From positions 620,001 to 684,000 of the forward strand of contig NZ_JAKGAM010000001.1 of NCBI RefSeq assembly GCF_023061285.1: a DNA stretch of 64,000 nt, read 5' to 3'. The first letter of the stretch is position 1. Every line of letters starts with the position of its first letter. This stretch comes from Chromohalobacter nigrandesensis. Its GTDB lineage: Bacteria > Pseudomonadota > Gammaproteobacteria > Pseudomonadales > Halomonadaceae. The notes under the pieces were generated by a model that was given only the letters and a program-made list of their open reading frames with translations, was not told the DNA's origin and did not search any database. Positions 24,077-57,552 of the stretch are shown here, piece after piece. A program made the translations under genes and the position numbers.

Positions 24077-24121
24077 GCCGCCCAGCGTAACCTTGCGAGG
24101 GAGTGCGCCATTGCGGGCCCC

Positions 24122-24145
24122 GGTGTAGACAGGCCGACTCACACC
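24122..24145. promoter_or_regulatory. Candidate Ogr-homologue site at the P/O divergence
   Basis: GGTGT at 24122-24126 and ACACC at 24141-24145 are separated by 14 bp. The same symmetric pattern occurs before V (29736-29759) and FI (36971-36994). Here it can serve both the leftward P-Q and rightward O-S operons. P2 Ogr is known to bind a TGT/ACA dyad upstream of each late promoter. Confidence 0.8.
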
Positions 24146-24221
24146 CGGCCCGCGTTGAGCCCGGCCGCCGGTGCGCGGAACCTGATGCCAATACGCATCC
24201 CGCACCGCTCGAGGACACTTC

Positions 24222-25037
24222 ATGAAATGGTTTCGCATCGCAACCGAAGGCGCGACGACTGACGGCCGCAACATCAGTGCCGCCTGGCTGCAGCAGATGG
24301 CCGACAACTTCGACCCCAATACCTACGGATGCCGGATCAACCTGGAGCACATGCGCGGCATGATGCCGGATGGCCCGTTCAAGAGTTACGGCGATGTCAC
24401 CGCGTTGAAGGCCGAGCAAGGCGAAGACGGCAAGCTGCAGCTGTACGCATCCATCGACCCCACCGACGAGTTGAAGGCACTCAACGACAAGCGCCAGAAG
24501 GTCTACACCTCGATGGAAGTCGACCCCAACTTCGCGGACTCCGGCGAAGCGTATCTCGTCGGCCTGGCCGTTACCGACTCGCCTGCCTCGCTGGGTACCC
24601 AGATGCTCCAGTTCGCCGCCGGCGCGGGTAACGAGTCGCCGCTGGCCGGACGCAAGCAGCGCGCGGACAACCTCTTTTCCGCCGCCGTCGAAACCGCGTT
24701 CGACTTCACCACCGAGCCACCGGCCGATCCCGGCCCGTCACTCACCGAGCGCGTCAAGGCGCTGTTTCGCAAGCACGACGCCAAAAGCGAGGCGGGATTT
24801 ACCGCGTTTCGCGACGAGCTCGAGCAGACCCTGGGGCTATTCGTCGAGAAGCATCAGGCCCTGGCCGACGATCTCAACGCGCGGCCCAGCGCCACGGCTT
24901 TCAATGAACTGAAAGCCGCCCACGACACCCTGCAAACCCGCTTCGACGAGCTGTATCAGCGCATCGACAACACACCGCGCCACACTCCACGCCAGCGCGC
25001 CACCGGCGACGACGGCACCATCGAAACCGACTGCTGA
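24222..25037 (+). CDS. O: Capsid scaffolding protein / prohead protease (P2 gpO family)
   Basis: This 271-residue protein has a two-part layout like gpO. The N-terminal ~140 residues form a herpesvirus-type serine protease (D14 in TTDGRN, H43 in INLEHMRG, with a serine in VYTSMEVDPNFADSGEA the likely nucleophile). The C-terminal part is a helical scaffold rich in Ala, Glu and Lys. P2 gpO uses an Asp-His-Ser triad with a D-to-H spacing of 29 residues, the same as here. It guides assembly of the capsid protein and cleaves it. It is the first gene of the rightward late operon. Confidence 0.93.
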   Translation: MKWFRIATEGATTDGRNISAAWLQQMADNFDPNTYGCRINLEHMRGMMPDGPFKSYGDVTALKAEQGEDGKLQLYASIDPTDELKALNDKRQKVYTSMEVDPNFADSGEAYLVGLAVTDSPASLGTQMLQFAAGAGNESPLAGRKQRADNLFSAAVETAFDFTTEPPADPGPSLTERVKALFRKHDAKSEAGFTAFRDELEQTLGLFVEKHQALADDLNARPSATAFNELKAAHDTLQTRFDELYQRIDNTPRHTPRQRATGDDGTIETDC

Positions 25038-25052
25038 GGAATCCCGACGCTC

Positions 25053-26066
25053 ATGCGTAACGATACCCGCAAACTCCTGAACAACTACGCCCAGCGGCTC
25101 GCCCAGCTCAACGGTGCCCCGAACGCGTTCGCAACGTTCGATGTCGATCCGTCGGTGCAGCAGACGCTGGAAACCAAGATCCAGGAATCAAGCGAGTTCC
25201 TGAACCGCGTCAACATGGTCGGTGTGCGCGACATGGTCGGCGAAAAACTCGGGCTCGGTATCAGCGGCCCCATCGCTGGGCGTACCGATATCAGCCAGCG
25301 CGACCGCAATCCCAGCGATCCCACCACGCTGGACGAACACGAATACCGCTGCCAATCCACCGAGTTCGATACTTTCCTGAGCTGGGCCAAGTTGGATGCC
25401 TGGGCCAAATTCCCGGACTTTCAGGCCCGCGTGCGCGACGCGATCATTCGCCAGCAAGCCCTCGACCGCATCATGATCGGGTTCAATGGCACTAGCGCTG
25501 CCAAGCAGACCGACCGTAGCGCGAACCCAATGCTCGAAGACGTCAACGCGGGCTGGTTGCAGCAATACCGCGCCAATGCCGCCGCGCGCGTGATCGACGG
25601 TGTCCAGATCGGCAAGGGCCAGGAATTCCAGAACCTCGACGCGCTGGTGTACGAGGCGGTCAACTCGCTGATTGACCCGTGGTACCGCGACAACACCGAC
25701 CTCGTCGCCATCGTCGGCCGCTCGCTGATGACCGACAAGTACCTGCCCAAGATCAACGAGTGGGAACAGCCCACGGAATCGCGCGCCCTGGATCTCATCA
25801 TGGCTGCCAAGCGCCTCGGCGGGCAGAACGCCATGCAGGTGCCGTTCATGAAAGACAACGCCATCTTCATCACCAGCACCGAGAACCTCTCGATCTACTG
25901 GCAGGAAGGCTCACGCCGGCGCCACCTGGTCGAGAAGCCGGAGCGCAAGCGCATCGTCAACTATGAATCCAGCAACGATTCCTACGTGATCGAAGATTAT
26001 GGCTTCGGCTGCCTGATCGAGGGCATCGAGTTTGCAGACGCAGACACCAGCGGTAGCGGGGAATAA
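25053..26066 (+). CDS. N: Major capsid protein (P2 gpN family)
   Basis: This 337-residue HK97-fold coat protein has the gpN hallmarks: the N-terminal LLNNYAQRLAQLNG, then TDISQRDRNP, EHEYRCQSTEFDTFLSWAKL and the C-terminal RRRHLVEKPERKRIVNYES. The N-terminal region is expected to be removed by gpO during maturation. It lies 15 bp after O and 2 bp before M. Confidence 0.96.
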   Translation: MRNDTRKLLNNYAQRLAQLNGAPNAFATFDVDPSVQQTLETKIQESSEFLNRVNMVGVRDMVGEKLGLGISGPIAGRTDISQRDRNPSDPTTLDEHEYRCQSTEFDTFLSWAKLDAWAKFPDFQARVRDAIIRQQALDRIMIGFNGTSAAKQTDRSANPMLEDVNAGWLQQYRANAAARVIDGVQIGKGQEFQNLDALVYEAVNSLIDPWYRDNTDLVAIVGRSLMTDKYLPKINEWEQPTESRALDLIMAAKRLGGQNAMQVPFMKDNAIFITSTENLSIYWQEGSRRRHLVEKPERKRIVNYESSNDSYVIEDYGFGCLIEGIEFADADTSGSGE

Positions 26067-26068
26067 CG

Positions 26069-26734
26069 ATGGTCAGTTCCATTCGTCGACACTTCGAACG
26101 CGTCAGCGCCGCGCAAGCGGCGCGTGACGCCGGCGACGCGCCCATGCACGGCGACGAATACCACCTCATGCAAGCCAAGCTCTTCGAGGACTATCGGCGC
26201 CTGAAAAGCGTCCAGTCTGTCGAGCGCAAGGTCGCCATCAAGCGCGAGATTCTTCCCGACTACGCCGATTATGTCGACGGCGTGCTCGAGGGCGGTGCCG
26301 GCGCACAAGACGAGGTACTGATGCGCGTCCTGCTCTGGCGCATCGACATCGGCGATATCGATGGCGCGTTGGGCATCGGCCGCTATGCCCTGCGCTACGG
26401 GCTCGAGCCTGGCGATCAGTTTCAACGCTCCACCGCTGCGATTCTCGTCGAGGAAGCCGCCGATCAGGCGCTCGCCCTGGAAGAGGACGACGCCAGCCTG
26501 CTCGCAGCACTTCAGGAGATCGAACGCCTTACCGAAGGTGCGGACATGCACGACCAGATCCGCGCGAAATTGCACAAGGCCCTGGGCAATGCCCATCGCG
26601 CCGCCGGCGAACCGCAAGAAGCGCTGACGCATTTCCGCCGTGCACTGGCGCTCAACGAGCGCGCCGGCGTCAAGAAAGACATCGAGCGCCTCGAACGCGA
26701 GGTGAAGAACGCAGGCGATCAGGCCAACTCCTGA
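26069..26734 (+). CDS. M: Terminase small/endonuclease subunit (P2 gpM family)
   Basis: This 221-residue protein has the gpM pattern: the N-terminal SSIRRHFERVSAAQAA, then HLMQAKLFEDYRRLKSVQS and VLMRVLLWRIDIGDIDGAL. With gpP it recognises and cuts cos. The C-terminal third is charged and helical, with a TPR-like ending. It sits in the conserved O-N-M-L order. Confidence 0.93.
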   Translation: MVSSIRRHFERVSAAQAARDAGDAPMHGDEYHLMQAKLFEDYRRLKSVQSVERKVAIKREILPDYADYVDGVLEGGAGAQDEVLMRVLLWRIDIGDIDGALGIGRYALRYGLEPGDQFQRSTAAILVEEAADQALALEEDDASLLAALQEIERLTEGADMHDQIRAKLHKALGNAHRAAGEPQEALTHFRRALALNERAGVKKDIERLEREVKNAGDQANS

Positions 26735-26845
26735 CCGTCGCCAACGAGTCGCACGCCGACGTCAGGGGGCGCGACGCCAGAGTAGCGACTTATCACTGCT
26801 CGACGCGTCGCCCACCCCCTTCATACACGAACACCAGGAGCCACG

Positions 26846-27316
26846 ATGAGCAGCTTCGTTTCGACCGGCACCACAAGCACCACCACCGCCGAGCCCGTCA
26901 CGAATAACGGCTTCTGGCCGGACATCGAGCCCAGCGAGTTTCGCGACACGCATCGCCTCGACGGCACCATCACCGCCGTGCGCATCGAAGGCGCCCTGCT
27001 CGCTGCCATGGCCACGGTCAACCGCACCCTGCGTGACTGGCAGACCAAACAGGTCGACGCAGGCTACGCCACCGTTGATGCCGTGCCGGTACCGATCTGG
27101 CAGGCACCGGGCGTATTCGATGCGTTGTATCGCCGCGCGGTCTTCTCCACGGCGCATGCCAGCCTGGTCGAGCGTTATCGCGATTACGACGCCACCGCCT
27201 CGACCCGTGACCGGGGCGATCTCAACGAGTACACCGGCGAAAGCTACCGGCGCGACGCCGCCTGGGCGATCAGCGAGATCGAGGGTCGCCCGCACAGCAC
27301 GGTCGAGCTGATATGA
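26846..27316 (+). CDS. L: Head completion/stabilisation protein (P2 gpL family)
   Basis: This 156-residue protein contains FWPDIEPSEFRDTHRLDGTI and the helical core LLAAMATVNRTLRDWQ, as in gpL. It closes filled heads before tail joining. CAGGAG lies before the ATG. Its end overlaps the X gene by 4 bp. The 111-bp gap after M shows no gene. Confidence 0.93.
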   Translation: MSSFVSTGTTSTTTAEPVTNNGFWPDIEPSEFRDTHRLDGTITAVRIEGALLAAMATVNRTLRDWQTKQVDAGYATVDAVPVPIWQAPGVFDALYRRAVFSTAHASLVERYRDYDATASTRDRGDLNEYTGESYRRDAAWAISEIEGRPHSTVELI

Positions 27317-27525
27317 GCCGCACCGTGCACGCGCGCCAGGGCGACACGCTGGATGCCATTTGCTATCGCGCCTACGGCCGCACCGCCGCCGTCACCGAAC
27401 GCGTGCTGGAGGCCAATCCCGGCGTCGCCGACCTGGGGCCGATATTGCCGCATGGCACACCCGTCACGCTGCCCGAGATCACCCGACAGCCCAGCCGCGC
27501 GCTCGCCGTGCAGCTCTGGAACTGA
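27313..27525 (+). CDS. X: Tail protein X (P2 gpX family)
   Basis: This 70-residue LysM-like protein starts MSRTVHARQGDTLDAICYRA and has the LysM core VTERVLEANPGVADLGPILP. GpX is needed for tail assembly, probably at the baseplate hub. It overlaps L (ATGA) and precedes the lysis cassette, as in P2. Confidence 0.92.
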   Translation: MSRTVHARQGDTLDAICYRAYGRTAAVTERVLEANPGVADLGPILPHGTPVTLPEITRQPSRALAVQLWN

Positions 27526-27569
27526 ACGTTTTACCGCGCCGACACCGCGCGATTGCCGACGAGGACAGC

Positions 27570-27761
27570 ATGGCCCAGCCGCTCGAAATTACCACCGAAA
27601 GCCTCAAGGCAACCCCGCCGGCATTCGTCACCGCCTTGTACATGGGCGGCATGACGCCGGCCGACTGGGTCACGGCCCTCACCCTGCTCTATCTGGCGCT
27701 GCAAATCGGCCTGCTGATTCCGCATTACGTGCGCAAGTGGAAACGCTGGAGGGCGAAATAA
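27570..27761 (+). CDS. Holin
   Basis: This 63-residue protein starts MAQPLEITTESLKATPPAFV after GAGGA. One clear membrane segment (WVTALTLLYLALQIGLLIPHYV) is followed by a basic tail KWKRWRAK; a second, weaker hydrophobic stretch lies in the N-terminal half. Size, charge pattern and position directly before the endolysin identify it as the holin or pinholin. It is smaller than P2 gpY and not clearly related to it. The stop overlaps the endolysin ATG (TAATG). Confidence 0.75.
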   Translation: MAQPLEITTESLKATPPAFVTALYMGGMTPADWVTALTLLYLALQIGLLIPHYVRKWKRWRAK

Positions 27762-28234
27762 TGTCGATCAAACGCCGCCTCATCGTCGGCGGTACCGCCG
27801 GCGCCCTCAGCCTCGCCACAGCGGTGGTATCCCAGTTCGAGGGCTACCGGTCGGAGGCCTACCGCGACCCGGTGGGCATCCCGACCATCTGCTATGGCCA
27901 CACCGGCGATGTCGATATGGGTCAGACCCTGAGCCAGGCCAAGTGCAAGGAGCTGCTCGCAGAAGACCTCGGCGATGCTTTCGACGCCGTCGACCAACGC
28001 GTCGATATCGAGCTTCCCCCGGCGCGCCGCGCGGCTCTCGCCTCATTCGTCTACAACGTCGGCGAAGGCGCCTTCGCCCGCTCCACGCTGCTCGAGCGAC
28101 TCAACGCCGGCAAGATGCGCGCCGCCTGTGACGAGCTCACCCGTTGGGTCTACGCCGGGGGCCGAAAGCTCGCCGGCCTGGTCAAGCGCCGCGCCGCTGA
28201 ACGCAAGCTATGCCTGCGAGGGCTCAATCCATGA
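27761..28234 (+). CDS. SAR-type endolysin (glycoside hydrolase family 24)
   Basis: This 157-residue T4-lysozyme-type muramidase cleaves peptidoglycan. The catalytic triad is E27 (QFEGYR), D36 (YRDPVG) and T42 (IPTICYGHTG), with canonical spacing. The N-terminal VGGTAGALSLATAVV is a weakly hydrophobic Gly/Ala-rich segment typical of signal-anchor-release endolysins, which are exported by Sec and activated when released from the membrane. This would suit a small pinholin upstream. P2 gpK is of this family but lacks such an obvious SAR segment. Confidence 0.92.
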   Translation: MSIKRRLIVGGTAGALSLATAVVSQFEGYRSEAYRDPVGIPTICYGHTGDVDMGQTLSQAKCKELLAEDLGDAFDAVDQRVDIELPPARRAALASFVYNVGEGAFARSTLLERLNAGKMRAACDELTRWVYAGGRKLAGLVKRRAAERKLCLRGLNP

Positions 28235-28698
28235 TGGTGCTGGGACGCCTGCTCGGCGCCGTGCCGCTCAAGGTCTGGCTGGTGCTGATCGGCACCGGGG
28301 TGATCGGCGCCGGCGGCTGGTTCGCTTGGCAGGAATACCGCGCTGCCCTGACCGATGCATCCAGCGCCCAGCAAGCGCTTGATTCCGCCCAGGCCGAAAA
28401 CGCCCAACGCCAACTGGTGATCGACGCCTTGTGGCAAAACGCCCAGCGCCTCGAGGACCAGCGCCGGCAACTGGCCGAGACGAAAGCCGACCTCACCCGC
28501 ACCGCATCCAACCGCCTCGCCCACATCCGGGAACTACAGCATGACAACGATCAGATTCGCCGCTGGGCTGACACTCGCTTGCCTGACCGGGTTAGCCGGT
28601 TGCGCGAGCGCCCCGCCGTCACCGGCGCCGCCGCTTATCATCAATCAGTGCTCGACGCCCAGCCCGTGCACGCTACCGGCCAGCCACCCGACGACTAA
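28231..28698 (+). CDS. Rz-like inner-membrane spanin (LysB position)
   Basis: This is a 155-residue protein counting from the second of several candidate ATGs (28231, overlapping the endolysin stop). One N-terminal membrane segment (VWLVLIGTGVIGAGGWFAW) is followed by a long periplasmic coiled coil (about residues 40-110, AlaGlnGlu-rich). It ends in a Pro-containing tail. Rz1 is embedded in the +1 frame at its 3' half. Together they span the periplasm and fuse the membranes in the last step of lysis. Confidence 0.85.
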   Translation: MMVLGRLLGAVPLKVWLVLIGTGVIGAGGWFAWQEYRAALTDASSAQQALDSAQAENAQRQLVIDALWQNAQRLEDQRRQLAETKADLTRTASNRLAHIRELQHDNDQIRRWADTRLPDRVSRLRERPAVTGAAAYHQSVLDAQPVHATGQPPDD

Positions 28699-28831
28699 CG
28701 GCGAATTGCACCTGCAACTAGAGCACACCGAAGCCGCCTGGGCGCAATGTGCGGCCGAGGTCGATGCCATCATTCAATGCCACGAGCACACCGATGAAAA
28801 AACTCCATCTGCTACGCACGCACCTGATTAA
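28541..28831 (+). CDS. Rz1-like outer-membrane spanin lipoprotein (LysC position)
   Basis: This 96-residue protein overlaps Rz in another frame. The signal peptide ends in the lipobox LAGC (MTTIRFAAGLTLACLTGLAG, then Cys), followed by a proline-rich stretch ASAPPSPAPPLI, as in Rz1 proteins. The lipidated o-spanin pairs with Rz. The overlap architecture is conserved among P2-type phages. The C-terminal end runs into the start of R. Confidence 0.85.
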   Translation: MTTIRFAAGLTLACLTGLAGCASAPPSPAPPLIINQCSTPSPCTLPASHPTTNGELHLQLEHTEAAWAQCAAEVDAIIQCHEHTDEKTPSATHAPD

Positions 28832-29294
28832 CGCCGTGCCAGGGCTCGCCCGCGATCCCGACAAGCTGCTGACATTCGTCGAGGACGGCAGCCTCGAGTT
28901 TCGTCGCGGCCCCAACCTGTCCCACGAATACCAGTTCGCCGCGCAGCTGGTGCTGACCGACTTCGGCGACGACCTCGACACCGTGATGGTGCCATTGCTG
29001 CAGTGGCTGGCCGAGTATCAGCCCGACGCCGCCCCCGGTGAGGCAGTGACGTTCGAGGCGGAGATCCTCAGCAATCAGGCGGTAGACGTCGCGCTGCGCG
29101 TGCGGCTCACCGAGCGCGTGATCGCCAAGGTCGATTGCGACAGCGGCGCGATCCACGTCGACCATGTGTTGTCACGGTTCGAGCGCGATGCCTGCCCCAT
29201 CACGCATTGGCAGTTGCTACTGCGCGACGCCGAGGCCGACGACGACTACACCCTAGCCGCCGAATGGGGCGAGGAACCCACCGATGACGGATGA
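28794..29294 (+). CDS. R: Tail completion protein R (P2 gpR family)
   Basis: This 166-residue protein starts MKKLHLLRTHLINAVPGLAR. Family blocks include LLTFVEDGSLEFRRG, LVLTDFGDDLDTVMVPLLQWL and QPDAAPGE. GpR, with gpS, is needed to finish the tail so that it can join the head. An ATG 15 codons upstream in the same frame lies inside Rz1 and lacks homology. It overlaps S by 11 bp. Confidence 0.9.
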   Translation: MKKLHLLRTHLINAVPGLARDPDKLLTFVEDGSLEFRRGPNLSHEYQFAAQLVLTDFGDDLDTVMVPLLQWLAEYQPDAAPGEAVTFEAEILSNQAVDVALRVRLTERVIAKVDCDSGAIHVDHVLSRFERDACPITHWQLLLRDAEADDDYTLAAEWGEEPTDDG

Positions 29295-29742
29295 CCTGCA
29301 AGCCCTGGAGGACTGGGCAGCCCCGTTGCTCGCCCAGCTCGAAGCCAAGGAACGCCGCCGCCTGGCGCGCGTCATCGCACGCGACCTGCGCCGCAGCCAA
29401 CGCCAGCGCATCCGCGCGCAGACCAATCCCGACGGCACGCCCTACGCGCCCCGTAAGCCCCAGAAGTGGCGTTCCCGCCAAGGCGGCATCCGCCGAAGCG
29501 CCATGTTCGACAAGCTCTCCACCGCGAAATGGATGAAAGCCACCGCGCACGGCGATACCGCCGTGGTCGCTTTTATGGGCAACGTCGCGCGCATCGCCCG
29601 CACCCACCAATACGGCCTACGCGATCGTGTCGACCGCGACGGCCCCACCATCGACTACCCGCAGCGCGAGCTGCTCGGTTTTACTGACGCCGACCGTGAA
29701 CTCGTCATCAATTCGCTGTTCAACCATCTGGACCCGGTGTAA
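29284..29742 (+). CDS. S: Tail completion protein S / virion morphogenesis protein
   Basis: This 152-residue protein of the P2 gpS family shows the motif RRLARVIARDLRRSQRQRI, PDGTPYAPRKP and the C-terminal RELLGFTDADRELVINSLF. It acts in tail completion and resembles the Mu/P2 virion morphogenesis family. It ends the O-to-S operon. The next Ogr-type site (29736-29759) overlaps its stop codon. Confidence 0.93.
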   Translation: MTDDLQALEDWAAPLLAQLEAKERRRLARVIARDLRRSQRQRIRAQTNPDGTPYAPRKPQKWRSRQGGIRRSAMFDKLSTAKWMKATAHGDTAVVAFMGNVARIARTHQYGLRDRVDRDGPTIDYPQRELLGFTDADRELVINSLFNHLDPV

Positions 29743-29759
29743 GACGCCCGCGCCACACC
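29736..29759. promoter_or_regulatory. Candidate Ogr-homologue site before V
   Basis: GGTGT-N14-ACACC, with the left half overlapping the S stop codon and the right half 44 bp before the V ATG. GCACGATA (29791-29798) follows at a 31-bp distance, as it does downstream of the FI site. Confidence 0.8.
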
Positions 29760-29803
29760 CGCCGCCGCTTCGCCTGTCGCCGTAGCCCACGCACGATAGC
29801 GGC

Positions 29804-30322
29804 ATGCACAACGTCGCCGAACTTCTCCGCCTGATTCACAACCTCATCCGCACCGGCACTATCGCCGAAGTGGATCACGACGCCGCGCGTGTGCGCGTCA
29901 AATCCGGCGAGCTGCTCACCGATTGGCTGCTGTGGATCGAAGGCCGCGCCGGGACGACGCGTGACTGGGATCCGCCCACCGTGGGCGAGCAGGTCATCGT
30001 CTTCTCGCCCGGCGGCGATCCCGCCGCCGGCGTGGTGCTTACCGGCCTCTATCGCAGCGCACACCCGGCGCCTTCGAGCGATGCCAACGTCATCGGCCGC
30101 TGGTACCCGGACGGCACGCGCATCGAGTACGACCACGCCAAGCATCGGCTCTTCATCGACTGCGTGGGCGATATCGCCGTCAAGGCCACCGGTACCGTCA
30201 CCGTCGACGCCAAGTCGATCCACCACAACCAGGGCAACCCGGTCGTCACCACGGGCCACATCTGCCACTTCACCGGCAACCCGCACGGTGACGGCTCATC
30301 AACAGTCACGGCGGGGAAATAA
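29804..30322 (+). CDS. V: Baseplate spike protein V (P2 gpV family)
   Basis: This 172-residue protein has an N-terminal OB-like domain (LLRLIHNLIRTGTIAEVDHD, LLTDWLLWIEGRAGTTRDWDPPTVGEQV) and a C-terminal beta-helical spike ending in THXH-type residues (TTGHICHFTGNPHGDGS), where iron is bound in P2 gpV. The trimer is the membrane-piercing spike. It is somewhat shorter than P2 gpV (211). The ATG is so close to the activator site that the message may have little or no leader. Confidence 0.93.
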   Translation: MHNVAELLRLIHNLIRTGTIAEVDHDAARVRVKSGELLTDWLLWIEGRAGTTRDWDPPTVGEQVIVFSPGGDPAAGVVLTGLYRSAHPAPSSDANVIGRWYPDGTRIEYDHAKHRLFIDCVGDIAVKATGTVTVDAKSIHHNQGNPVVTTGHICHFTGNPHGDGSSTVTAGK

Positions 30323-30325
30323 GCC

Positions 30326-30523
30326 ATGGCACTCAGCAAGTCTCAGCTCAAAAGCCGCATAGTCAGCGAGATGCGCGCCCAGGGCGCCACCGCGACCGGG
30401 GAATACAGCTGGGTCAACCGCATGGCCGAGGCCATCGCCAATGCCGTGGTCGACGAAGTCCAGTCCAACGCCGAGGTGCCGGTCACCGGCGGCTCGAGCT
30501 CCGGCACTTACGAGGTGAAATGA
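30326..30523 (+). CDS. Small conserved phage protein between V and W
   Basis: This 65-residue hydrophilic, mostly helical protein (ALSKSQLKSRIVSEMRAQG, then WVNRMAEAIANAVVDEVQSN) is followed by a Gly/Ser/Thr-rich tail. It has no signal or membrane segment. Small genes occur here in several P2-like phages; I know no function. It overlaps W by 4 bp (ATGA), so it belongs to the operon. Confidence 0.75.
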   Translation: MALSKSQLKSRIVSEMRAQGATATGEYSWVNRMAEAIANAVVDEVQSNAEVPVTGGSSSGTYEVK

Positions 30524-30873
30524 TGGCAGGCATGTCGCGCACTACTGGCCAGCGCCTCGACGCCCTCGAGCACCTTCGGCAGTCGATCACCGACATTCTC
30601 ACCACGCCGCTGGGCTCGCGCGTAATGCGCCGCGACTACGGCTCGCTGCTGCCTGAACTCATCGACCAGCCGCTCAACGGGGCGACCGCACTGCGTGCCT
30701 ACTCCGCCACCGTCGTCGCGCTGATGAAGTGGGAACCGCGCGTCCGCGTGACACAGATCACCCGCATCGTCTCCACCACACGCCCAGGGCGTTTCGACCT
30801 GCGCATCGCAGGGCGTCGCGTCGACACCGGCGACGACGTCGCCATCGACGTCCCATTGGGGGCCGCCGCATGA
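30520..30873 (+). CDS. W: Baseplate assembly protein W (P2 gpW, gp25-like)
   Basis: This 117-residue baseplate wedge protein is homologous to T4 gp25. The core ITDILTTPLGSRVMRRDYGSL is diagnostic, followed by KWEPRVRVTQI. Two adjacent ATGs (30520, 30523) are possible. It overlaps J by 4 bp. Confidence 0.94.
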   Translation: MMAGMSRTTGQRLDALEHLRQSITDILTTPLGSRVMRRDYGSLLPELIDQPLNGATALRAYSATVVALMKWEPRVRVTQITRIVSTTRPGRFDLRIAGRRVDTGDDVAIDVPLGAAA

Positions 30874-31781
30874 GCTCCCCCATCGACCTTTCGCAACTGC
30901 CCGCGCCGGACGTCGTCGAGGAACTCGATTACGAAGACATCCTCGCCGAGCGCAAGGCGCGTCTGCTCGAGCTGACACCCGAGGATGAACGCGCGGACGT
31001 CAAAGCCACGCTCGCGCTCGAGTCCGAGCCGATCACCAAGCTGCTACAGGAAAACGCCTATCGGGAGCTGACATGGCGCCAGCGCGTCAACGAGGCCGCC
31101 CGGGCGGTGATGCTGGCCTACGCCGATGACGATGACCTCGATAACGTGGTGGCCAACTTCAACACCCAACGCCTCGAGGTCGATCCCGGCGACCCCGATA
31201 CTTCCCCACCGGTACCGCCGAACTACGAGAGCAATCGCGAGCTTCGCCTTCGTGCCCAGCGAGCCTTCGAGGGGCTGAGCGTCGCCGGCCCCACGGGTGC
31301 CTATGAATTTCACGCACTCAGCGCAGACGGCCGTGTTGCCGATGTCACCGCGATCAGCCCCCAACCCTGCGATGCACTGGTCACCGTGCTCTCGCGCCTC
31401 GCTGATGGCACTGCCGACCAGGAACTGCTCGACATCGTATATGCCGCGCTCTCTGCCGAGACCGTCCGCCCGGTATGCGACCGGCTCACCGTACAATCCG
31501 CCGAGATCGTCGATTACGCCATCGACGCCACGCTCTATCTCTACCCCGGCCCCGAGCAAGATCCGATTCGGGACGCCGCACAGTCACGTGCCGAGACCTA
31601 CGTGAAGACGCAACGCCGGCTCGGGCGCGATATCCGCCTCTCGGCGATCTACGCCGCGCTGCATGTCGAAGGCGTCCAGCGCGTCGAACTCGATGCCCCC
31701 ACCGAGGATGTCGTCCTCGACGACACCCAAGCCTCCCACTGCACCGAGATCGCCTTGCGCATTGGGGGCACCGATGAATAA
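30870..31781 (+). CDS. J: Baseplate assembly protein J (P2 gpJ family)
   Basis: This 303-residue protein equals the P2 gpJ length. It starts MSSPIDLSQLPAPDVVEELD, with the family block RQRVNEAARAVMLAYADDDDLDNV and PPNYESNRELRLRAQRAFEG. It forms the outer baseplate wedge with W and I. The frame is open upstream inside W without homology; the ATGA overlap fixes the start. Confidence 0.95.
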   Translation: MSSPIDLSQLPAPDVVEELDYEDILAERKARLLELTPEDERADVKATLALESEPITKLLQENAYRELTWRQRVNEAARAVMLAYADDDDLDNVVANFNTQRLEVDPGDPDTSPPVPPNYESNRELRLRAQRAFEGLSVAGPTGAYEFHALSADGRVADVTAISPQPCDALVTVLSRLADGTADQELLDIVYAALSAETVRPVCDRLTVQSAEIVDYAIDATLYLYPGPEQDPIRDAAQSRAETYVKTQRRLGRDIRLSAIYAALHVEGVQRVELDAPTEDVVLDDTQASHCTEIALRIGGTDE

Positions 31782-32406
31782 CCGATCTCTGCTACCGCCC
31801 AACGGTACCGAGCTCGAACGCGATGCGGCACAAGCGCTGGCCGAGATCGAGCGTGTGCCGGTACCGCTACGGCAACTGTGGAACCCCGACACCTGCCCCA
31901 TGCCCCTACTTCCTTACCTGGCGTGGGCGTTCAGCGTAGACCGTTGGGACACGACCTGGCCGGATACCACGAAACGCGGCGTAGTCCGCTCAGCGTTCTA
32001 CGTGCACCAGAAGAAAGGGACCATTTCGGCGCTCAGGCGCGTCGTCGAGCCGCTGGGCTACCTACTGGAAGTCGAGGAATGGTGGCAGATGGAACCGCTC
32101 GGCGAGCCCGGCACCTTCGCGCTGCGCATCGGCGTGCTGGATACCGGCATCACCGATGCGATGTACACCGAGCTCACCCGCCTCGTCGAAGACGCCAAGC
32201 CGCTGACACGCCACATCGTCGGGCTCGACCTGCTCGGCGAAACGCGCGGGCCGTTCTATCTGGGCGCGGCTACCTATGACGGCGACATCACCACCGTTTA
32301 CCCCTACGCCGCCGGCGACACCGAATCTACCGGCCCGATCTACATCGGCGGCGCGCTCGACGTCATCGACACTACCACCGTCTACCCGCAACCCGCGCAA
32401 CCATAA
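31774..32406 (+). CDS. I: Tail protein I (P2 gpI family)
   Basis: This 210-residue protein has LLPPNGTELERDAAQALAEI, LWNPDTCPMPLLPYLAWAFS and KGTISALRRVVEPLGY, all typical of gpI. It is a baseplate wedge component that attaches the tail fibre. The last ~60 residues contain two Thr/Val/Tyr/Pro repeats (TTVYPYAAGDTEST, TTTVYPQPAQP). It overlaps J by 8 bp. Confidence 0.93.
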   Translation: MNNRSLLPPNGTELERDAAQALAEIERVPVPLRQLWNPDTCPMPLLPYLAWAFSVDRWDTTWPDTTKRGVVRSAFYVHQKKGTISALRRVVEPLGYLLEVEEWWQMEPLGEPGTFALRIGVLDTGITDAMYTELTRLVEDAKPLTRHIVGLDLLGETRGPFYLGAATYDGDITTVYPYAAGDTESTGPIYIGGALDVIDTTTVYPQPAQP

Positions 32407-32421
32407 GAGGAGCTGTCGCCC

Positions 32422-33750
32422 ATGCCCCAGTTCTACACGCTGCCCACCATCGTTGGAGAGGCGAAGATCGCCAACGCCATCGCCCTGGGCGGCGCCGTCG
32501 AAATCACCGACCTCGCAATCGGCGACGGCGGCGGCAGCCTACCGACGCCGGACAGCGACCGCGAATCGCTCGTCAACGAAGTCCGCCGCGCCGCGATCAA
32601 CACCAGCGTCGTCGACGAGGACAACCCCAACTGGATCGTCGTCGAGCAGGTTCTCCCGCCGGACATCGGCGGCTGGACCATTCGCGAGATCGGCCTATAC
32701 GACACCGACGGCGATCTCATCGCCTACGGCAACTACCCCGAGACCTACAAACCGGTGCTGTCGGAAGGCTCAGGCAGAACGCAGACGATCCGCTTCGTCA
32801 TGCAGGTCTCGGACACCGCCGCCGTCACGCTCAAAGTCGACCCGTCGGTAGTGCTCGCTACCCGCGAATACGTCGATGACGAGATCACCGAACACGCCCA
32901 AAGCCGGAATCACCCCGACGCCACGACAACGGCCAAGGGAATGGTGCAGTTCGGTACCAGCGAGGAGACTCGGCAGGGCAACCGCACCGACCGCGCTGCC
33001 CATCTTGCTGGGGTGAAAGCGGCGGTTGATAAGCACAAAGAAGAATCTCAAGCGCATAACGCGTCAAAAATCGCGCTTAGCAATCCTGTTAAGCAAGCAC
33101 CTGATGCCGAAAACGTTGATGAAGCGCTTGCCGCCTTGGGGGCGTTTGCCGCTGATGGATACCAGAACATCGCCGTGTTCGATACCGCTGGGGTTACCGA
33201 GTGGAAAGTCCCGCAAATTCTGAAAGATGGCCGCCGCAAGGCTTACGTAGTCGTTGACGGGGCCGGAGCTGGTGCGGGAAGAAATGACACCGGCGGTGGC
33301 GGTGGCGGTGGTGGCGGTCACGCAGAGAAGGTGATCGATTTGACGGGGGTCGAAACTGTCACGATCACTATTGGGCTCGGTGGAGAAGGGGCCCCCGATG
33401 GTATTGGAAAAGCAGATGGAACTAATGGCGGTACAAGTTCATTCGGAGAATATCACAGTGCTGAAGGGGGGCGCGGCGGTACGAACTGGTTCGGCGGTCC
33501 CAGTGGTATTGGCATCGGAGGTGACATCAACACAAGCCTGGGGTGCGGTGGATCTGCGGCACGTAACGATGGCAACAGTAACGGCCGGTACCGAGGGGGC
33601 ATAGGAGGCGGTCCCGGTGGCAACACTACAGGCGCTGACGCGAGTTCCACAGGCGGTAATGCGACTGGCCCCGGCGGCGGCGGTGGCGGTGGTAACGAGA
33701 ACGCACCAGGTGGAAACGGCGCCGATGGACAGGTCATAGTGAGGTGGTAA
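32422..33750 (+). CDS. H: Tail fibre protein H with a polyglycine C-terminal domain
   Basis: This 442-residue protein's N-terminal ~150 residues are the phage tail-collar domain (TLPTIVGEAKIANAIALGG, GWTIREIGLYDTDGDLIAYG), which anchors the fibre to the baseplate. A middle part has a YPD-type repeat (NHPDATTTAKGMVQFGT). From about residue 285 to the end it is extremely Gly-rich (GGGGGGGGGH, GPGGGGGGGNENAPGGNGAD), as in phage adhesins that form polyglycine-II bundles with exposed receptor-binding loops. It is therefore the probable host-range determinant. It is shorter than P2 gpH (669). Confidence 0.9.
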   Translation: MPQFYTLPTIVGEAKIANAIALGGAVEITDLAIGDGGGSLPTPDSDRESLVNEVRRAAINTSVVDEDNPNWIVVEQVLPPDIGGWTIREIGLYDTDGDLIAYGNYPETYKPVLSEGSGRTQTIRFVMQVSDTAAVTLKVDPSVVLATREYVDDEITEHAQSRNHPDATTTAKGMVQFGTSEETRQGNRTDRAAHLAGVKAAVDKHKEESQAHNASKIALSNPVKQAPDAENVDEALAALGAFAADGYQNIAVFDTAGVTEWKVPQILKDGRRKAYVVVDGAGAGAGRNDTGGGGGGGGGHAEKVIDLTGVETVTITIGLGGEGAPDGIGKADGTNGGTSSFGEYHSAEGGRGGTNWFGGPSGIGIGGDINTSLGCGGSAARNDGNSNGRYRGGIGGGPGGNTTGADASSTGGNATGPGGGGGGGNENAPGGNGADGQVIVRW

Positions 33751-33752
33751 GC

Positions 33753-34289
33753 ATGTGGGCACGTATCAATAACAACGGCATCGTGACCGAAATCACGGAC
33801 ATTGACCCGACGGGACGTTTTCATCCGTCGCTAACATGGATCGAATGCGGTGATGACGTGCGCCCGCGTTGGCACTACGACGGCGAGGCGTTCTCAGCGC
33901 CGCCCAGTGAATCGCTCGCCGACCTCGCACAGCGCAAACGCCACGAGATCGACGCCGCCCGTGACCAGGCCTTCGCCACCGGCCTCGACTACGACATCGC
34001 TGGCGAGCCCGACGTCGTCCAAACCCGCGCCCAGGACCAGATCAATCTGCTCGGCCTACGCGCAAAGGCCGAGTCGCGCGCCGCCGCCGGCGTCACCGAC
34101 GCGGTCATGGAGTTTCGCGGCAAGAGTAACGTGACGCATCAGCTCACGCCCGAGGACATGATCGCACTGACCACTGCCGCGCTCGATCACATCGAAGGGA
34201 TCTATAAGAGATCATGGGAACGGAAGGACGCCGTCGATGCCGCGCTTGAGAATGAAGATCGGGAGGGGATTGAAGCGGTGGCGTGGTGA
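33753..34289 (+). CDS. Tail fibre assembly-like protein (gpG position)
   Basis: This 178-residue protein has a GAGGTGG ribosome site before ATG 33753; a GTG at 33744 overlapping H is less likely. The N-terminal ~55 residues are beta-rich (MWARINNNGIVTEITDIDP). The C-terminal part is a helical DUF4376-like domain (LAQRKRHEIDAARDQAF, then LTPEDMIALTTAALDHIEGIYKRS). The place after H fits a fibre chaperone. A decayed second copy of its 3' half lies at 34837-35050, beyond the YegP-like gene. Confidence 0.75.
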   Translation: MWARINNNGIVTEITDIDPTGRFHPSLTWIECGDDVRPRWHYDGEAFSAPPSESLADLAQRKRHEIDAARDQAFATGLDYDIAGEPDVVQTRAQDQINLLGLRAKAESRAAAGVTDAVMEFRGKSNVTHQLTPEDMIALTTAALDHIEGIYKRSWERKDAVDAALENEDREGIEAVAW

Positions 34290-34314
34290 ACGCTATCACC
34301 TCCGGGAATGAAGA

Positions 34315-34334
34315 AGCCCGCCTATTGGCGGGCT
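34315..34334. terminator. Hairpin ending the V-to-G operon and the YegP-like gene
   Basis: AGCCCGCC-TATT-GGCGGGCT is a perfect 8-bp stem between two convergent genes. The minus-strand side is followed by TCTTCATT, so it should terminate the YegP-like gene best. Confidence 0.7.
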
Positions 34335-34344
34335 GCCATGCTCG

Positions 34345-34677
34345 TCAATCTTCCTTGAACTTCATCACACCCTGACCATTCGTCTTCACAGATTCGATGC
34401 CATTTTCTCTCGCTGCATCGGACGAGTACATCTCGCTGGTCCCGATCACCTGACCGTTTGCCGCCTTCAGGTTGAAGAAAGGCTGACCGCTCTTGGACTC
34501 TTTCCGATCATAGCGATCATCGTTACCGCTGTTGGTGCGGCAGGACTCGATGCCGTTCTCGGCAGCCCCTCGTGTCGTGTAGCGCTCGCTGGATAGGATC
34601 ACCTCATGGTTACCCGCCTTGAGCGTGAAGTGGTACTGGCCATCAGTAGCCTGCTTGAGTTCGTAATAACCCGCCAT
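34345..34677 (-). CDS. YegP-like DUF1508 protein (cargo gene)
   Basis: This 110-residue protein consists of two tandem ~50-residue DUF1508 repeats: AGYYELKQATDGQYHFTLKA with GAAENGIESCRTNS, and GQPFFNLKAANGQVIG with AARENGIESVKTNG. GGAG lies 8 bp before the ATG. It stands opposite to the late operons, so it can be expressed in the lysogen. E. coli YegP is of the same two-repeat type and has no firm function. It interrupts the G gene neighbourhood: the intact G gene lies on one side and a decayed G remnant on the other. Confidence 0.88.
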   Translation of the reverse strand: MAGYYELKQATDGQYHFTLKAGNHEVILSSERYTTRGAAENGIESCRTNSGNDDRYDRKESKSGQPFFNLKAANGQVIGTSEMYSSDAARENGIESVKTNGQGVMKFKED

Positions 34678-34836
34678 CGTTCGATCTCCATGCTGGTTGT
34701 ACAACCAAAAGAACCCCGTCCAGCGAAGACAAGGCCCTACCACTTCTAGTACCCATGGGGCGAGTCTGCCACCGTTCCGTTGTATACCCGCGATCCACAA
34801 TGCCGACCCCGGCGAGGCTCCCCGACATCGTCCTGT

Positions 34837-35050
34837 AATACGACATCGCCAGCGAGGTGAGCTTCGCGGCAAAAGCAACAAAACGCGCATGCTCACGCCC
34901 GAGGAAATGATCAAGCTGACCACCGCCGCGCTCGATCATATCGAGAGGATCTATAAACGCAGTTGGGATCGGAAGGACGCCGTCGCTGATGCACTTGAGA
35001 ATGAGGATCGGGAGGGGGTTGAAGCGGTCGCCTGGCTATCGGGAGCATAA
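34837..35050 (+). pseudogene. Decayed second copy of the gpG-position gene 3' end
   Basis: Two segments match the gene at 33753-34289. TACGACATCGCCAGCGAG at ~34839 matches the middle of that gene, and 34858-35040 matches its last ~60 codons (LTPEEMIKLTTAALDHIERI, then KDAVADALENEDREGVEAVAW). The region between is deleted and no start signal is present, so this is a remnant. It marks the far edge of the YegP-like insertion. Confidence 0.82.
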
Positions 35051-35135
35051 AAGGGAACCGGCCTGAAATTGACGCTGGACGAGAAAGTAGCGAAGATAAT
35101 GAACGCTATACGCAACACCCTACTCAGGTGCCCTC

Positions 35136-35942
35136 ATGCCTCAGCCGCAGCCCCGCGCCACCGCCATCGCCGAGATCATTGACGAACTTAGACGCATGGA
35201 AAAGAGGCGTGGCCACACGACCCAACTGGATGAGCGGCGTTTGCATAGATCGCTCGCCAGGCTAGACGATAGCGCCGAGAGTCAAGCTGCGCGTAAGGCC
35301 ATCTGGGCCCAGTGGAACAGGGACCATGAGTCGTTCGATTCAGCCGTCACGACCCTGCTCAAGATGGAGAATCTGAGCCGACCTCACAGTCTCTACGTCA
35401 ATTTTGCGCTAATGTCTATGCACGCCCTGAACCCCGTTCTCTCCAGCCGTTTGAACCGCGCGGCATTCCGGACCGAGCAGCATAATCTGGAGTTCCTTCG
35501 TCATGTGCTGCGAAACGCCTGGCACGCGGCGGATCTGGAATGTTGCGAGGAAGTGATCATACAGCTCGGCCGACTCAAGGCCGATGACTACGACAAACAC
35601 AACAAACCACTCCAGATAGCCAAAGATTTGCTCGAAACTCACGGCATCACGCTGGCCGAGTTCCAGCAGCATATTCAACGCGTCTTTGACCAGATGCGTG
35701 GCTTTCTGACGAACCGGCCCGATGCCTACATGGGCACCGGGATCGCCACCAACATCTATGACGACGGCCACCGGGAATTCGTTCTAGAGTTCCAGCTCGG
35801 CGTGGACGACGAGACCCTCGATACCATCGATGAAGCGCTACTGGAACTGCTCTCGGACACCAACCGGGTGCGGCCGGCGCTCAACAAGTGCGTGGGCGTG
35901 CTGGTTCGGGACCATCCCAGCGAGATCACCGAGGCCTGCTGA
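35136..35942 (+). CDS. Unknown protein paired with a HEPN gene (cargo)
   Basis: This 268-residue soluble protein has no signal or membrane segment. The N-terminal ~55 residues are charged and helical (IAEIIDELRRMEKRRGHTT). A helical middle follows, and the C-terminal ~80 residues look alpha/beta (MGTGIATNIYDDGHREFVLE). I recognise no family. Its stop overlaps the ATG of the HEPN gene (TGATG), so the two are co-translated. The pair lies between G and FI, the slot where P2 carries fun(Z), a phage-exclusion gene. A role in defence or toxin control is inferred from context only. Confidence 0.7.
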   Translation: MPQPQPRATAIAEIIDELRRMEKRRGHTTQLDERRLHRSLARLDDSAESQAARKAIWAQWNRDHESFDSAVTTLLKMENLSRPHSLYVNFALMSMHALNPVLSSRLNRAAFRTEQHNLEFLRHVLRNAWHAADLECCEEVIIQLGRLKADDYDKHNKPLQIAKDLLETHGITLAEFQQHIQRVFDQMRGFLTNRPDAYMGTGIATNIYDDGHREFVLEFQLGVDDETLDTIDEALLELLSDTNRVRPALNKCVGVLVRDHPSEITEAC

Positions 35943-36304
35943 TGCCGGACCGCTTGCTTACCATTGCCCAGGAACAACTCGACGCTACCCCATACGATCA
36001 AGCGCGACTGCGCAGCGCGGTCAATCGCGCCTATTACGCCGCCTTCCTGACCGGCCGAACCTATTGCGACGAAAAGGCGCTGGTCACGGGTACGGGCGCC
36101 AGCCACGAGAAGGTGATTCATGCCCTGCTGGACCACCCCAATCTTGCCAAGCGCGGAAACCAGCTCAACGAAATGAAGCGGCTACGCCACAAAGCCGATT
36201 ACGACTGGGACCGAGACATCTCCCCTCGAGATGCCAAGAAGACGCTGAAAACCTGCAGGGAACTGGTCGCCTTTTTCCAATTCATCGACCCGCCTGTCGA
36301 ATAG
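35942..36304 (+). CDS. HEPN / UPF0332-family protein (cargo)
   Basis: This 120-residue all-helical protein has the family signatures LRSAVNRAYYAAFLTGRTYC and MKRLRHKADYDWDRDI, the latter carrying the conserved Arg...Ala-Asp-Tyr. HEPN proteins include RNases and partners in toxin-antitoxin, Abi and CRISPR systems. UPF0332 members often pair with nucleotidyltransferases, whereas the upstream partner here is of unknown type. Translation is coupled to the preceding gene. Whether this is the effector or the regulator of the pair cannot be told. Confidence 0.82.
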   Translation: MPDRLLTIAQEQLDATPYDQARLRSAVNRAYYAAFLTGRTYCDEKALVTGTGASHEKVIHALLDHPNLAKRGNQLNEMKRLRHKADYDWDRDISPRDAKKTLKTCRELVAFFQFIDPPVE

Positions 36305-36314
36305 ACCCGCCGTC

Positions 36315-36366
36315 TGAACTGACCCCCGAAAGCTGGACATCGGTCCAACTGTAGGGGGTCAGTTCA
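36315..36366. repeat. Abutted inverted repeats resembling both ends of an IS3-family element
   Basis: TGAACTGACCCCC (36315-36327) and its exact complement (36354-36366) enclose 26 bp that continue the symmetry imperfectly (AGCTGGAC / GTCCAACT). Read from each side this gives TGAACTGACCCCC-N3-AG-Y-TGGAC, the look of IS3-family terminal repeats. Only ATCG lies between the two ends. It may be an IS remnant reduced to its ends, or a stem-loop terminator of the HEPN operon. Confidence 0.6.
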
Positions 36367-36389
36367 ATGGGTAGCGGGCTTTAGGTCCT

Positions 36390-36866
36390 TCAATCAAAGG
36401 CGCTAGGCCTGACCACTGGCTTGGGCGGAAATTCAGCGTAGGTGGTTTTTATACCCAACTTCATCCCTATCTTGTTCAAGCTACGGATAACCCTATCTGG
36501 GACTCGTACGCCGGGCATGTATGTCTGATCTTCGCCATGTAGAACATCGTTAGCCATCAAGTTCAGGAGCATGGAGGTCTCTGTGACATCTCCCGCCTTG
36601 GGTACAAAGCGCAGCAGGGCCCACAATTTATAAAATGGTATCGCCTGCATCTTGGCTACGTTGATCGCTCCCATTTTTTTCAGCGAATTTGACATATCTT
36701 CTGTCGCGTTACAGTTAGTTATAGATGACTGATTAGAAAGAAGATAATAACTTAGCTGACCAAAAGCCTCACGAAGATCCAAAATAGGTTTGATCATAAA
36801 TTGTTCAATCAATTTGCCGAGCACGAAGACCGAAACCCCAGTCACCACCGTTGCGAATATTTCCAC
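36390..36866 (-). CDS. Membrane-anchored protein of unknown function (cargo)
   Basis: This 158-residue protein is read from a GTG at 36866 with AAGGGGAGG just upstream; the frame is open further but without a better start. One N-terminal membrane segment (FATVVTGVSVFVLGKLIEQF) is followed by IKPILDLREAFGQLSYYLL and a soluble helical part of ~115 residues. It is AT-richer than the phage structural genes. Its position before FI, opposite to the late operons, fits lysogen expression. Superinfection exclusion is a possibility without direct evidence. Confidence 0.7.
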   Translation of the reverse strand: MEIFATVVTGVSVFVLGKLIEQFMIKPILDLREAFGQLSYYLLSNQSSITNCNATEDMSNSLKKMGAINVAKMQAIPFYKLWALLRFVPKAGDVTETSMLLNLMANDVLHGEDQTYMPGVRVPDRVIRSLNKIGMKLGIKTTYAEFPPKPVVRPSAFD

Positions 36867-36970
36867 TGGCCTCCCCTTTTTTATCGGACACCGTTCTACA
36901 ACCTTCACCAGTCTACCAGCCCCGACACCATGAACGCCTGACGCCCCCTGACCAGAGCACACAATGGCTA

Positions 36971-36994
36971 GGTGTAAACCCCGCCTCTCACACC
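36971..36994. promoter_or_regulatory. Candidate Ogr-homologue site before FI
   Basis: GGTGT-N14-ACACC, 94 bp before the FI ATG. GCACGATA follows at 37026-37033, the same 31-bp distance as at the V site, and could contain the -10 region. Confidence 0.8.
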
Positions 36995-37088
36995 CTGCCC
37001 CACTAACACCCTAACCGCTCACCCCGCACGATACCTGCGTGAATTCACGTCTTTTTTGAAGACTCGCTGAACCTGCGCAGGAGCCACC

Positions 37089-42403: not shown

Positions 42404-42845
42404 GCTCATGGCCCTTGGAATGTTCGTATTTGAAGTCGGCAGCGTCCCCTACCAGCAACTCAAGCGCGCCACCGAATGGCGGCACGCCAGCCAGTCGCGC
42501 GTCGGGGATCGCCCTGCGTATCAATTTATCGGCCAGGGGAGCGATACCATTACCCTCAGCGGCACCTTGCTCCCCGAATTCACCGGTGGCCGGCTGGACC
42601 TCGACGAGATCCGCGACATGGCCGACCAGGGCCAGGCGTGGCCGCTGGTCGAGGGAACCGGGCGGCAGTACGGCCTGTGGGTGATCACCAAGGTCGACGA
42701 AACCTCGAGCGCGTTTTTCCGTGACGGCGCGGCGGCGAAGATCGAATTCACCCTCTCGCTCGAGCACGTCGACGACCGACGCACCGACCTGATGGGCGAC
42801 CTCACCACCTCCACCCTCGCCCGTCTCGCCGGGGCCTACGCATGA
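42402..42845 (+). CDS. U: Tail protein U (P2 gpU family)
   Basis: This 147-residue tail terminator-like protein starts MLMALGMFVFEVGSVPYQQL, matching the P2 start. It contains YQFIGQGSDTITLSGTLLPE, DMADQGQAWPLVEGTGRQYG and KIEFTLSLEHVDD. GAGAGGAAA precedes the ATG. It overlaps D by 4 bp. Confidence 0.95.
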   Translation: MLMALGMFVFEVGSVPYQQLKRATEWRHASQSRVGDRPAYQFIGQGSDTITLSGTLLPEFTGGRLDLDEIRDMADQGQAWPLVEGTGRQYGLWVITKVDETSSAFFRDGAAAKIEFTLSLEHVDDRRTDLMGDLTTSTLARLAGAYA

Positions 42846-47727: not shown

Positions 47728-47761
47728 AATATCTACCCACGTCCTCGACATAGCCACTTTC

Positions 47762-57451: not shown

Positions 57452-57483
57452 GCAAACCTCCCTGATGTACCAAATTGCCGACG

Positions 57484-57516
57484 CACCATGTGCCAAATTT
57501 GTACCAACACATGGTG
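57484..57516. promoter_or_regulatory. Perfect 9-bp inverted repeat before int
   Basis: CACCATGTG (57484-57492) and CACATGGTG (57508-57516) are separated by 15 bp that contain a second, smaller AAATTT dyad. It lies between the int start and the att core. It is a candidate operator for int or an integrase/excisionase binding site. The motif GTACCAAAT at 57467-57475 is shared with the left end (19257-19265). Confidence 0.6.
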
Positions 57517-57552
57517 AAAAACATGGCATAAACACTGTAAATATGAACAGTT

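What the first reader, a model, noticed from the sequence alone, without database searches (positions are those of the whole stretch)
24122..36994. GGTGT-N14-ACACC before three late operons: likely site of the phage's Ogr homologue
The same symmetric sequence stands at 24122-24145 (between divergent P-Q and O-S), 29736-29759 (before V) and 36971-36994 (before FI), exactly the places of P2 late promoters. A scan by eye found no other full copy. The dyad is TGT/ACA as for P2 Ogr, but as I recall the P2 spacing is 12, here 14. The prophage encodes an Ogr/Delta finger (50825-51088).
Basis: partly seen in the sequence, partly recalled or inferred. Interest (0 to 1): 0.78.

Follow-up and report, generated by a model that had tools for sequence, protein, structure and literature searches.

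The report
Late-gene switch sites of halophile phage
Three identical mirror-image DNA signs in a dormant virus of a salt-loving bacterium are very probably where the virus's own zinc-finger protein switches on its late genes; it looks like the known phage P2 switch with two extra bases between the half-signs.

Summary
Observation confirmed: GGTGT-N14-ACACC stands exactly at 24122, 29736 and 36971, with no other exact copy in the window and 4 elsewhere in the 3.64-Mb host genome. The prophage is P2-like, in a Chromohalobacter-like host, and encodes an Ogr/Delta finger. Interpretation supported by comparison. Of 29 phages (the window and relatives), 28 share a dyad before O, V and FI that beats all 40 shuffles; 85 of 86 sites read TGT-N13-ACA or TGT-N14-ACA. 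GGTGT-N14-ACACC is the form of 14 phages with related Ogr, 38 of 42 sites exact. A(-11) and T(-7) of a -10 lie at one fixed distance from the dyad centre in 107 of 115 promoters, as in P2. Dyad form follows Ogr better than virion genes. In 28 of 29 phages V and P start codons lie at the predicted start, so both mRNAs are probably leaderless; P2's record implies this for V. New here: the N14 class, the 12/13/14 spacing series tied to Ogr, leaderless P. No binding or transcript data were available. Verdict: new variant of a known kind.

The parts
24122..24145 (.). Dyad GGTGT-N14-ACACC shared by the divergent promoters of the P-Q and O-S operons
   Evidence: exact match; same place in relatives
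29736..29759 (.). Dyad before the V operon; left arm overlaps last codon and stop codon of S
36971..36994 (.). Dyad before the FI operon
24084..24089 (-). Predicted -10 of the P promoter (TACGCT)
   Evidence: A(-11)/T(-7) phase, 27 of 29 phages
24178..24183 (+). Predicted -10 of the O promoter (GAACCT); predicted start near 24190
   Evidence: 29 of 29 phages
29792..29797 (+). Predicted -10 of the V promoter (CACGAT); predicted start near 29804, the A of the V ATG
   Evidence: 25 of 29 phages; ATG distance
37027..37032 (+). Predicted -10 of the FI promoter (CACGAT); predicted start near 37039
   Evidence: 26 of 28 phages
22292..24076 (-). P, terminase large subunit; ATG 57 bases from the dyad centre, predicted leaderless
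   Evidence: PHROG; start position
21219..22295 (-). Q, portal protein, second gene of the P-Q operon
   Evidence: PHROG 68
24222..25037 (+). O, head scaffolding protein, first gene of the O-S operon; purine-rich stretch (GAGGA) before the ATG
   Evidence: PHROG 73; sequence
29284..29742 (+). S-like tail completion protein, end of the O-S operon
   Evidence: PHROG 26
29804..30322 (+). V, baseplate assembly protein; predicted leaderless
   Evidence: PHROG 9992
37089..38273 (+). FI, tail sheath; ATG preceded by AGGAG
   Evidence: PHROG 23; sequence
42842..43846 (+). D tail protein, end of the FI operon
   Evidence: PHROG 52
50825..51088 (+). Ogr/Delta zinc finger, 87 aa, CX2CX22CX4C, in the early region, about 450 bases before the primase gene
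   Evidence: PF04606 E 1e-13; PHROG 603; sequence

Best explanation
The three dyads are the binding sites of this prophage's Ogr protein (50825-51088), in four late promoters P, O, V and FI; the P/O site serves both directions. Ogr, made from the early region, would bind the TGT half-sites, probably as a dimer on half-sites 14 bp apart, centred about 56 bp upstream of the start. From there it would recruit host sigma-70 RNA polymerase, probably through its alpha subunit (recalled from P2 work), to promoters that have a -10 but no recognisable -35. Shown here: the sites, their conservation, the fixed distance to the -10, and the co-variation of dyad with Ogr. Inferred: binding, dimer, polymerase contact, start sites. 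The V and P messages probably begin at the A of their ATG or a base or two away, and so lack a leader.
For: Three exact copies where 0.03 are expected. The same dyad at the same three places in 14 phages: 38 of 42 sites exact, 3 with one mismatch, 1 with two. In 28 of 29 phages the best shared dyad before O, V and FI beat all 40 shuffles; 85 of 86 sites read TGT-N13/14-ACA. A(-11)/T(-7) at one phase in 107 of 115 promoters, at most 17 at any other offset scanned. P2's annotated starts lie 55.5 (O, P), 56.5 (V) and 56.5-58.5 (F) from its dyad centres, its sites being read as GTTGT-N12. In the window the composite TGT-N14-ACA plus -10 pattern hits the four promoters and one other place. Spacing needs 2 changes on the Ogr tree (100 shuffles: 6 or more) and 4 to 6 on trees of P, N, J, O. 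Partial Mantel, 28 phages: spacing with Ogr given virion distance 0.598, p 0.00025; reverse -0.239. G056 has virion proteins 73% identical to the window's on average (P 86%) but an Ogr only 33% identical, and its dyads are TGT-N13-ACA with T before the TGT in 5 of 6 half-sites. Three held-out phages had exactly one TGT-N11..15-ACA in about 730 bp before FI, with a -10 in phase within one base: N14, N14, N13; their nearest surveyed Ogr relatives have N14, N14, N13 (looked up afterwards).
Against: No wet data. Two of four phages from other hosts (Acica, KL3) gave no shared dyad over 20 shuffles; only V has an N13 dyad there. Many IMG/VR loci, with asymmetric TTGTG half-sites like those of 186, gave no clear symmetric dyad. 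The Ogr tree rests on 86 columns with long branches (G056, G216, G067, L012). Half-site likeness keeps a small link to virion distance given Ogr (0.202, p 0.004). Mantel p-values ignore shared descent. Dyad type names and one spacing (G145) were set by hand.
Confidence: 0.91

Rival explanations
1. The dyads are sites of another regulator, for example the prophage CI-like repressor (49166-49855) or a host factor, which times late transcription; Ogr acts elsewhere.
For: A symmetric site suits any dimeric regulator; the prophage encodes a CI-like repressor.
Against: Dyad form and spacing follow Ogr; the position relative to the -10 equals that of the activator sites annotated in P2; no exact copy lies beside the repressor gene. 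CI and host factors were not tested as predictors.
Confidence: 0.05
2. The dyad is an RNA stem or terminator at the end of the upstream operon.
For: Inverted repeat between operons; one lies at the end of S.
Against: The 14 inner bases differ at each site and do not extend the stem; arms are conserved as sequence; the P/O copy lies between divergent genes, where no operon ends; the terminator scan did not list these sites.
Confidence: 0.02
3. Shared descent only: the dyads are copied along with the late genes and have no function.
For: The phages are related.
Against: The arms are kept while inner bases change; phages with close virion genes but different Ogr have different dyads, e.g. G056 against the window; the same places hold different dyads in different Ogr lineages.
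Confidence: 0.01

Closest known systems
Ogr-activated late promoters of phage P2 (and 186 B)
   Same: Four promoters PP, PO, PV, PF; one activator site shared by P and O; sites centred about 55.5-58.5 from the annotated starts; V start codon equal to the annotated transcription start (record NC_001895). 186 also has one shared B site.
   Different: P2 spacing is given as 12 (PMC3931495, passages), here 14; arms GGTGT instead of the GTTGT type; P2 P has a leader of 23 bases by its record, here none predicted; P2 ogr lies behind D, here in the early region.
Late-promoter motif of Ralstonia phages RSA1/RSY1, TGTTGT-(X)13-ACAACA
   Same: Symmetric TGT...ACA motif before four late operons (PMC5694545, passages read)
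   Different: Spacing 13 and TTGT arms; the same class is seen here in AP3 and several Halomonadaceae-family phages.
Late promoters of Stenotrophomonas phage Smp131
   Same: Single site read in both directions between P and O (PMC3931495, passages read)
   Different: Given as similar to TGT-N12-ACA; operon make-up differs.

Membership tests
Ogr/Delta-dependent late promoters of P2-like phages (wide sense) | Sites before P-Q, O-S, V and FI operons of a P2-like phage | tested here: met
   PHROG hits; sites
Ogr/Delta-dependent late promoters of P2-like phages (wide sense) | TGT...ACA dyad centred about 55 upstream of the start, with -10 and no -35 | tested here: met
   -10 phase in 107 of 115; P2 starts; no sigma-70 pair listed at these sites. 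The start itself is predicted, not measured.
Ogr/Delta-dependent late promoters of P2-like phages (wide sense) | Phage encodes an Ogr/Delta C4 finger, CX2CX22CX4C | tested here: met
   PF04606; sequence; cysteine pattern as quoted in PMC3931495
Ogr/Delta-dependent late promoters of P2-like phages (wide sense) | Ogr binds the dyad and late transcription depends on it | not testable with these tools
   needs footprint, reporter or deletion
P2-type site in the strict sense | Half-site spacing of 12 (TGT-N12-ACA) | tested here: not met
   spacing 14 at all three sites
Leaderless late mRNA (V, P) | Transcription starts at the start codon | tested here: inconclusive
   ATG at 56-57 (V) or 55-57 (P) from the centre in 28 of 29 phages each, in frames that match V and P in 28 of 28 each; the start of transcription is inferred from the -10 phase

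The most novel reading that the evidence does not exclude
The Ogr family has changed the geometry of its DNA site step by step, 12 to 13 to 14 bp between half-sites, with lineage-specific arms, while the distance from dyad centre to -10 stayed fixed; site and activator move together as a module (G056). In the Halomonadaceae-family lineages two of the four late messages (P and V) are kept leaderless. This gives a natural series of activator-site pairs for a zinc-finger family for which no solved structure was found here.
Probability: 0.6. Interest if true: 0.62.

Novelty: new variant of a known kind. Interest (0 to 1): 0.5.

Why it matters
How Ogr/Delta proteins recognise DNA seems open: the only PDB chain listed for this Ogr by sequence had E 0.49, and the fold matches of the model, NrdR and ZPR1 among the best, are weak (E 0.31 and above). 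Twenty-nine natural phages that pair an Ogr with predicted sites of spacing 13 or 14, plus the N12 class, make recognition and dimer geometry testable by swaps. The fixed -10 phase gives a practical way to predict late promoters, start sites and leaderless genes in P2-like prophages beyond the enterobacterial models.

Tried and rejected
Rejected: RNA hairpin or terminator; chance; a simple residue code (a Gly in the finger loop seemed to go with N14, but Pseudomonas phage Dobby has that Gly and N13). A first assignment of the Ogr of G056 was wrong: the copy taken lies outside its late genes on the opposite strand; the prophage's own Ogr is at L176 5276-5581. (29-phage trees) used the wrong copy; one search is the corrected run and gives the same change counts.

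Led nowhere: K139 (the TTGT and GTGT dyads of spacing 11-15 listed are not in its P-O region); KL3 and Acica; Rfam on window 18000-60000 (0 matches); PADLOC on ten accessory proteins (0 matches); primase as a control gene (no power: on 16 phages every tree needs 1 change); literature searches for leaderless P2 late genes listed no paper on the point. one search failed on a syntax error and was run again.

Rows dropped or chosen: one search was given 49 of the 80 IMG/VR loci plus two phage records; 28 of those 51 have an Ogr match. Of the top 40 Ogr hits, 25 gave late regions with O, V and FI; 15 did not (contig ends, or no such genes in the stretch), and two of these 15 (G083, G178) were used for FI only. 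L012 has two regions only. G290b failed, because its FI start had been set wrongly, and was then used as held-out. My expectation for G083 and G178 came from the Gly idea that I later rejected; their nearest Ogr relatives were looked up only. The 16 IMG/VR phages were chosen because one search had shown the TTGTG dyad, so their dyad is not blind; the -10 phase is.
Full report
WHAT IS THERE. GGTGT-N14-ACACC occurs exactly three times in the window, at 24122-24145, 29736-29759 and 36971-36994. In window 20001-57600, 3 copies stand against a mean of 0.03 and a maximum of 1 in 300 Markov sequences. The whole host genome has 7 places, three of them these; 6 same-genus genomes without an Ogr match have 3 to 7 (its table of places was cut, the counts per genome were not).

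SETTING. PHROG hits give the P2 order: DNA methylase, Q, P on the minus strand; O, N, M, L, spanin, R, S; V, W, J, I, tail fibres; FI, FII, E, T, U, D on the plus strand. A CI-like repressor (49166-49855), Ogr (50825-51088), primase (51538-54225) and integrase (56396-57535) follow. Ogr is 87 aa, matches PF04606 at E 1e-13 and has CX2CX22CX4C. The three relatives with 90-94% identical Ogr are Chromohalobacter; two of their contigs have the lengths of contigs of same-genus genomes, from which I take the host to be Chromohalobacter or very near it.

SURVEY. Ogr was sought in 250 genomes drawn from the host family; 73 have a match. Stretches around the top 40 hits were fetched; 25 gave late genes. 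With the window, phages 4908 and ZY1 and two IMG/VR contigs (L011, L012) this makes 30 phages, 29 with all three regions. A search that was not told the motif, for an inverted repeat shared by the regions before O, V and FI, found in 28 of 29 a dyad over all 40 mononucleotide shuffles; G290b failed, 20 of 40 shuffles reaching its score. 85 of 86 sites read TGT-N13-ACA or TGT-N14-ACA; the exception is the FI site of G145, which ends in ACC (G145 was set to N14 by hand). 19 phages have N14 and 10 have N13 (L012 with two sites included, G290b not). GGTGT-N14-ACACC belongs to 14 phages, 38 of 42 sites exact. Other forms: GTTGT-N13-ACAAC (L012, G100, G158, G273, G154, G087, G219), CTGTAAG arms N13 (G052, G168), TGTAC arms N14 (G261, G181, G112), and G056, G067, G216 with looser arms. 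A further set of IMG/VR contigs has TTGTG-N10-CACAA, that is TGT-N12-ACA.

PROMOTER GEOMETRY. Counted from the dyad centre, the -10 has A at -11 and T at -7 in one phase in 107 of 115 promoters: P 27 of 29, O 29 of 29, V 25 of 29, FI 26 of 28; no other offset from 25 to 64 has more than 17. In 16 N12 phages 56 of 64 promoters have it one base nearer and the other 8 at the same phase. In P2 the annotated starts lie 55.5 (O, P), 56.5 (V) and 56.5-58.5 (F) from the dyad centres. The window's four -10s are TACGCT (P), GAACCT (O), CACGAT (V) and CACGAT (FI); the promoter scan listed no -35/-10 pair there. The composite pattern hits these four and one other place in the window.

LEADERLESS V AND P. 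The V ATG is 56 or 57 from the centre in 28 of 29 phages, the P ATG 55-57 in 28 of 29; G056 is the exception in both. All 28 frames of each match the window's V or P. In G056 the start codons lie about 26 bases further down. P2's record puts the V start of transcription on the V ATG and the P start 23 bases before the P ATG, so leaderless V is already in the record, and leaderless P is the addition here. In five of the 16 N12 phages a P ATG also stands at the start position (L034, L045, L049, L077, L085, seen by eye).

DYAD FOLLOWS OGR. After the Ogr of G056 was put right, on 29 phages spacing needs 2 changes on the Ogr tree (100 shuffles: 6 or more) against 4 on the P tree and 6 on each of N, J and O, where some shuffles do as well; dyad type needs 5 against 7-9 (types were named by me). 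The N14 phages, G216 apart, form one clade of 18 with support 95/95. Partial Mantel with 28 phages: half-site likeness with Ogr given virion distance 0.564 (p 0.00025), the reverse 0.202 (p 0.004); spacing 0.598 (p 0.00025), the reverse -0.239. Of 196 pairs between the GGTGT class and the rest, 168 have closer virion proteins than the most distant pair inside the class. In a tree with P2, 186 and the N12 set, three changes explain 12, 13 and 14 (made with the wrong G056 Ogr). On the 16 phages with a long primase hit all trees need 1 change, so that control has no power.

HELD-OUT CHECKS. Three phages outside the set had one TGT-N11..15-ACA each in about 730 bp before FI: G083 N14, G178 N14, G290b N13, with the -10 in phase 44, 44 and 45. 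Their nearest Ogr in the set has N14 (72%), N14 (63%) and N13 (96%), looked up afterwards. From other hosts, Burkholderia AP3 (GTTGT-N13-ACAAC) and Pseudomonas Dobby (TGT-N13-ACA) had the dyad and the phase at all three places; Acica and KL3 did not, apart from V.

MECHANISM. Most likely: Ogr, expressed with the early genes, binds the dyads and brings sigma-70 polymerase to four promoters without a recognisable -35; one site serves both P and O. That Ogr contacts the alpha subunit is recalled from the P2 literature, not from a call. A model of Ogr (mean pLDDT 82.9) has three strands and a C-terminal helix, which I read as a zinc ribbon; none of its PDB matches by Foldseek is significant, and NrdR entries and ZPR1 are among the best (E 0.31-0.38).

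PRINT. P2 N12 and Smp131: PMC3931495; RSA1/RSY1 N13: PMC5694545; passages of both were read. The passages seen of PMC3091744, PMC5312081, PMC8537503, PMC11131426, PMC11448403 and PMC8628076 gave no Ogr site motif. Searches of the open library listed no title or abstract start that reports an N14 class or leaderless P; the listed papers were not all opened, and subscription papers are mostly not held.

Noticed in passing
46900-47790 (-): Prophage gene with a match just under the cut-off to HipA_2, a HipA-like kinase (E 3.8e-06, 26.8 bits against 27), next to a gene of a PHROG family of unknown function at 46031-46903.
   Followed up: partly
34345-34923 (-) and 35136-35942 (+): Genes between the tail fibre genes and FI, where P2 carries fun(Z): one DUF1508 protein with two matched stretches and one with no PHROG or Pfam match.
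   Followed up: partly
L177 15989-16243, L181 15974-16243, L175 3752-4075, L179 15950-16240, L183 15974-16243, L173 15992-16246: A second Ogr type (RKSQQ loop) in six genomes; in L181 it stands near a CI-like repressor, an integrase and a D-protein fragment, which looks like a P2-like remnant. Its target dyads are unknown.
   Followed up: partly
L176 and L177 (G056): The one phage of 29 where V and P are not predicted leaderless: the start codons lie about 26 bases further on.
   Followed up: partly
L009 (phage ZY1, recorded host Bacillus pumilus): Its Ogr, dyads and late genes belong with phages of the Halomonadaceae family; the recorded Bacillus host looks doubtful.
   Followed up: no
L075: A dyad CTTGC-N10-GCAAG before O and FI with a looser form before V: possibly a further, non-TGT site class.
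   Followed up: no
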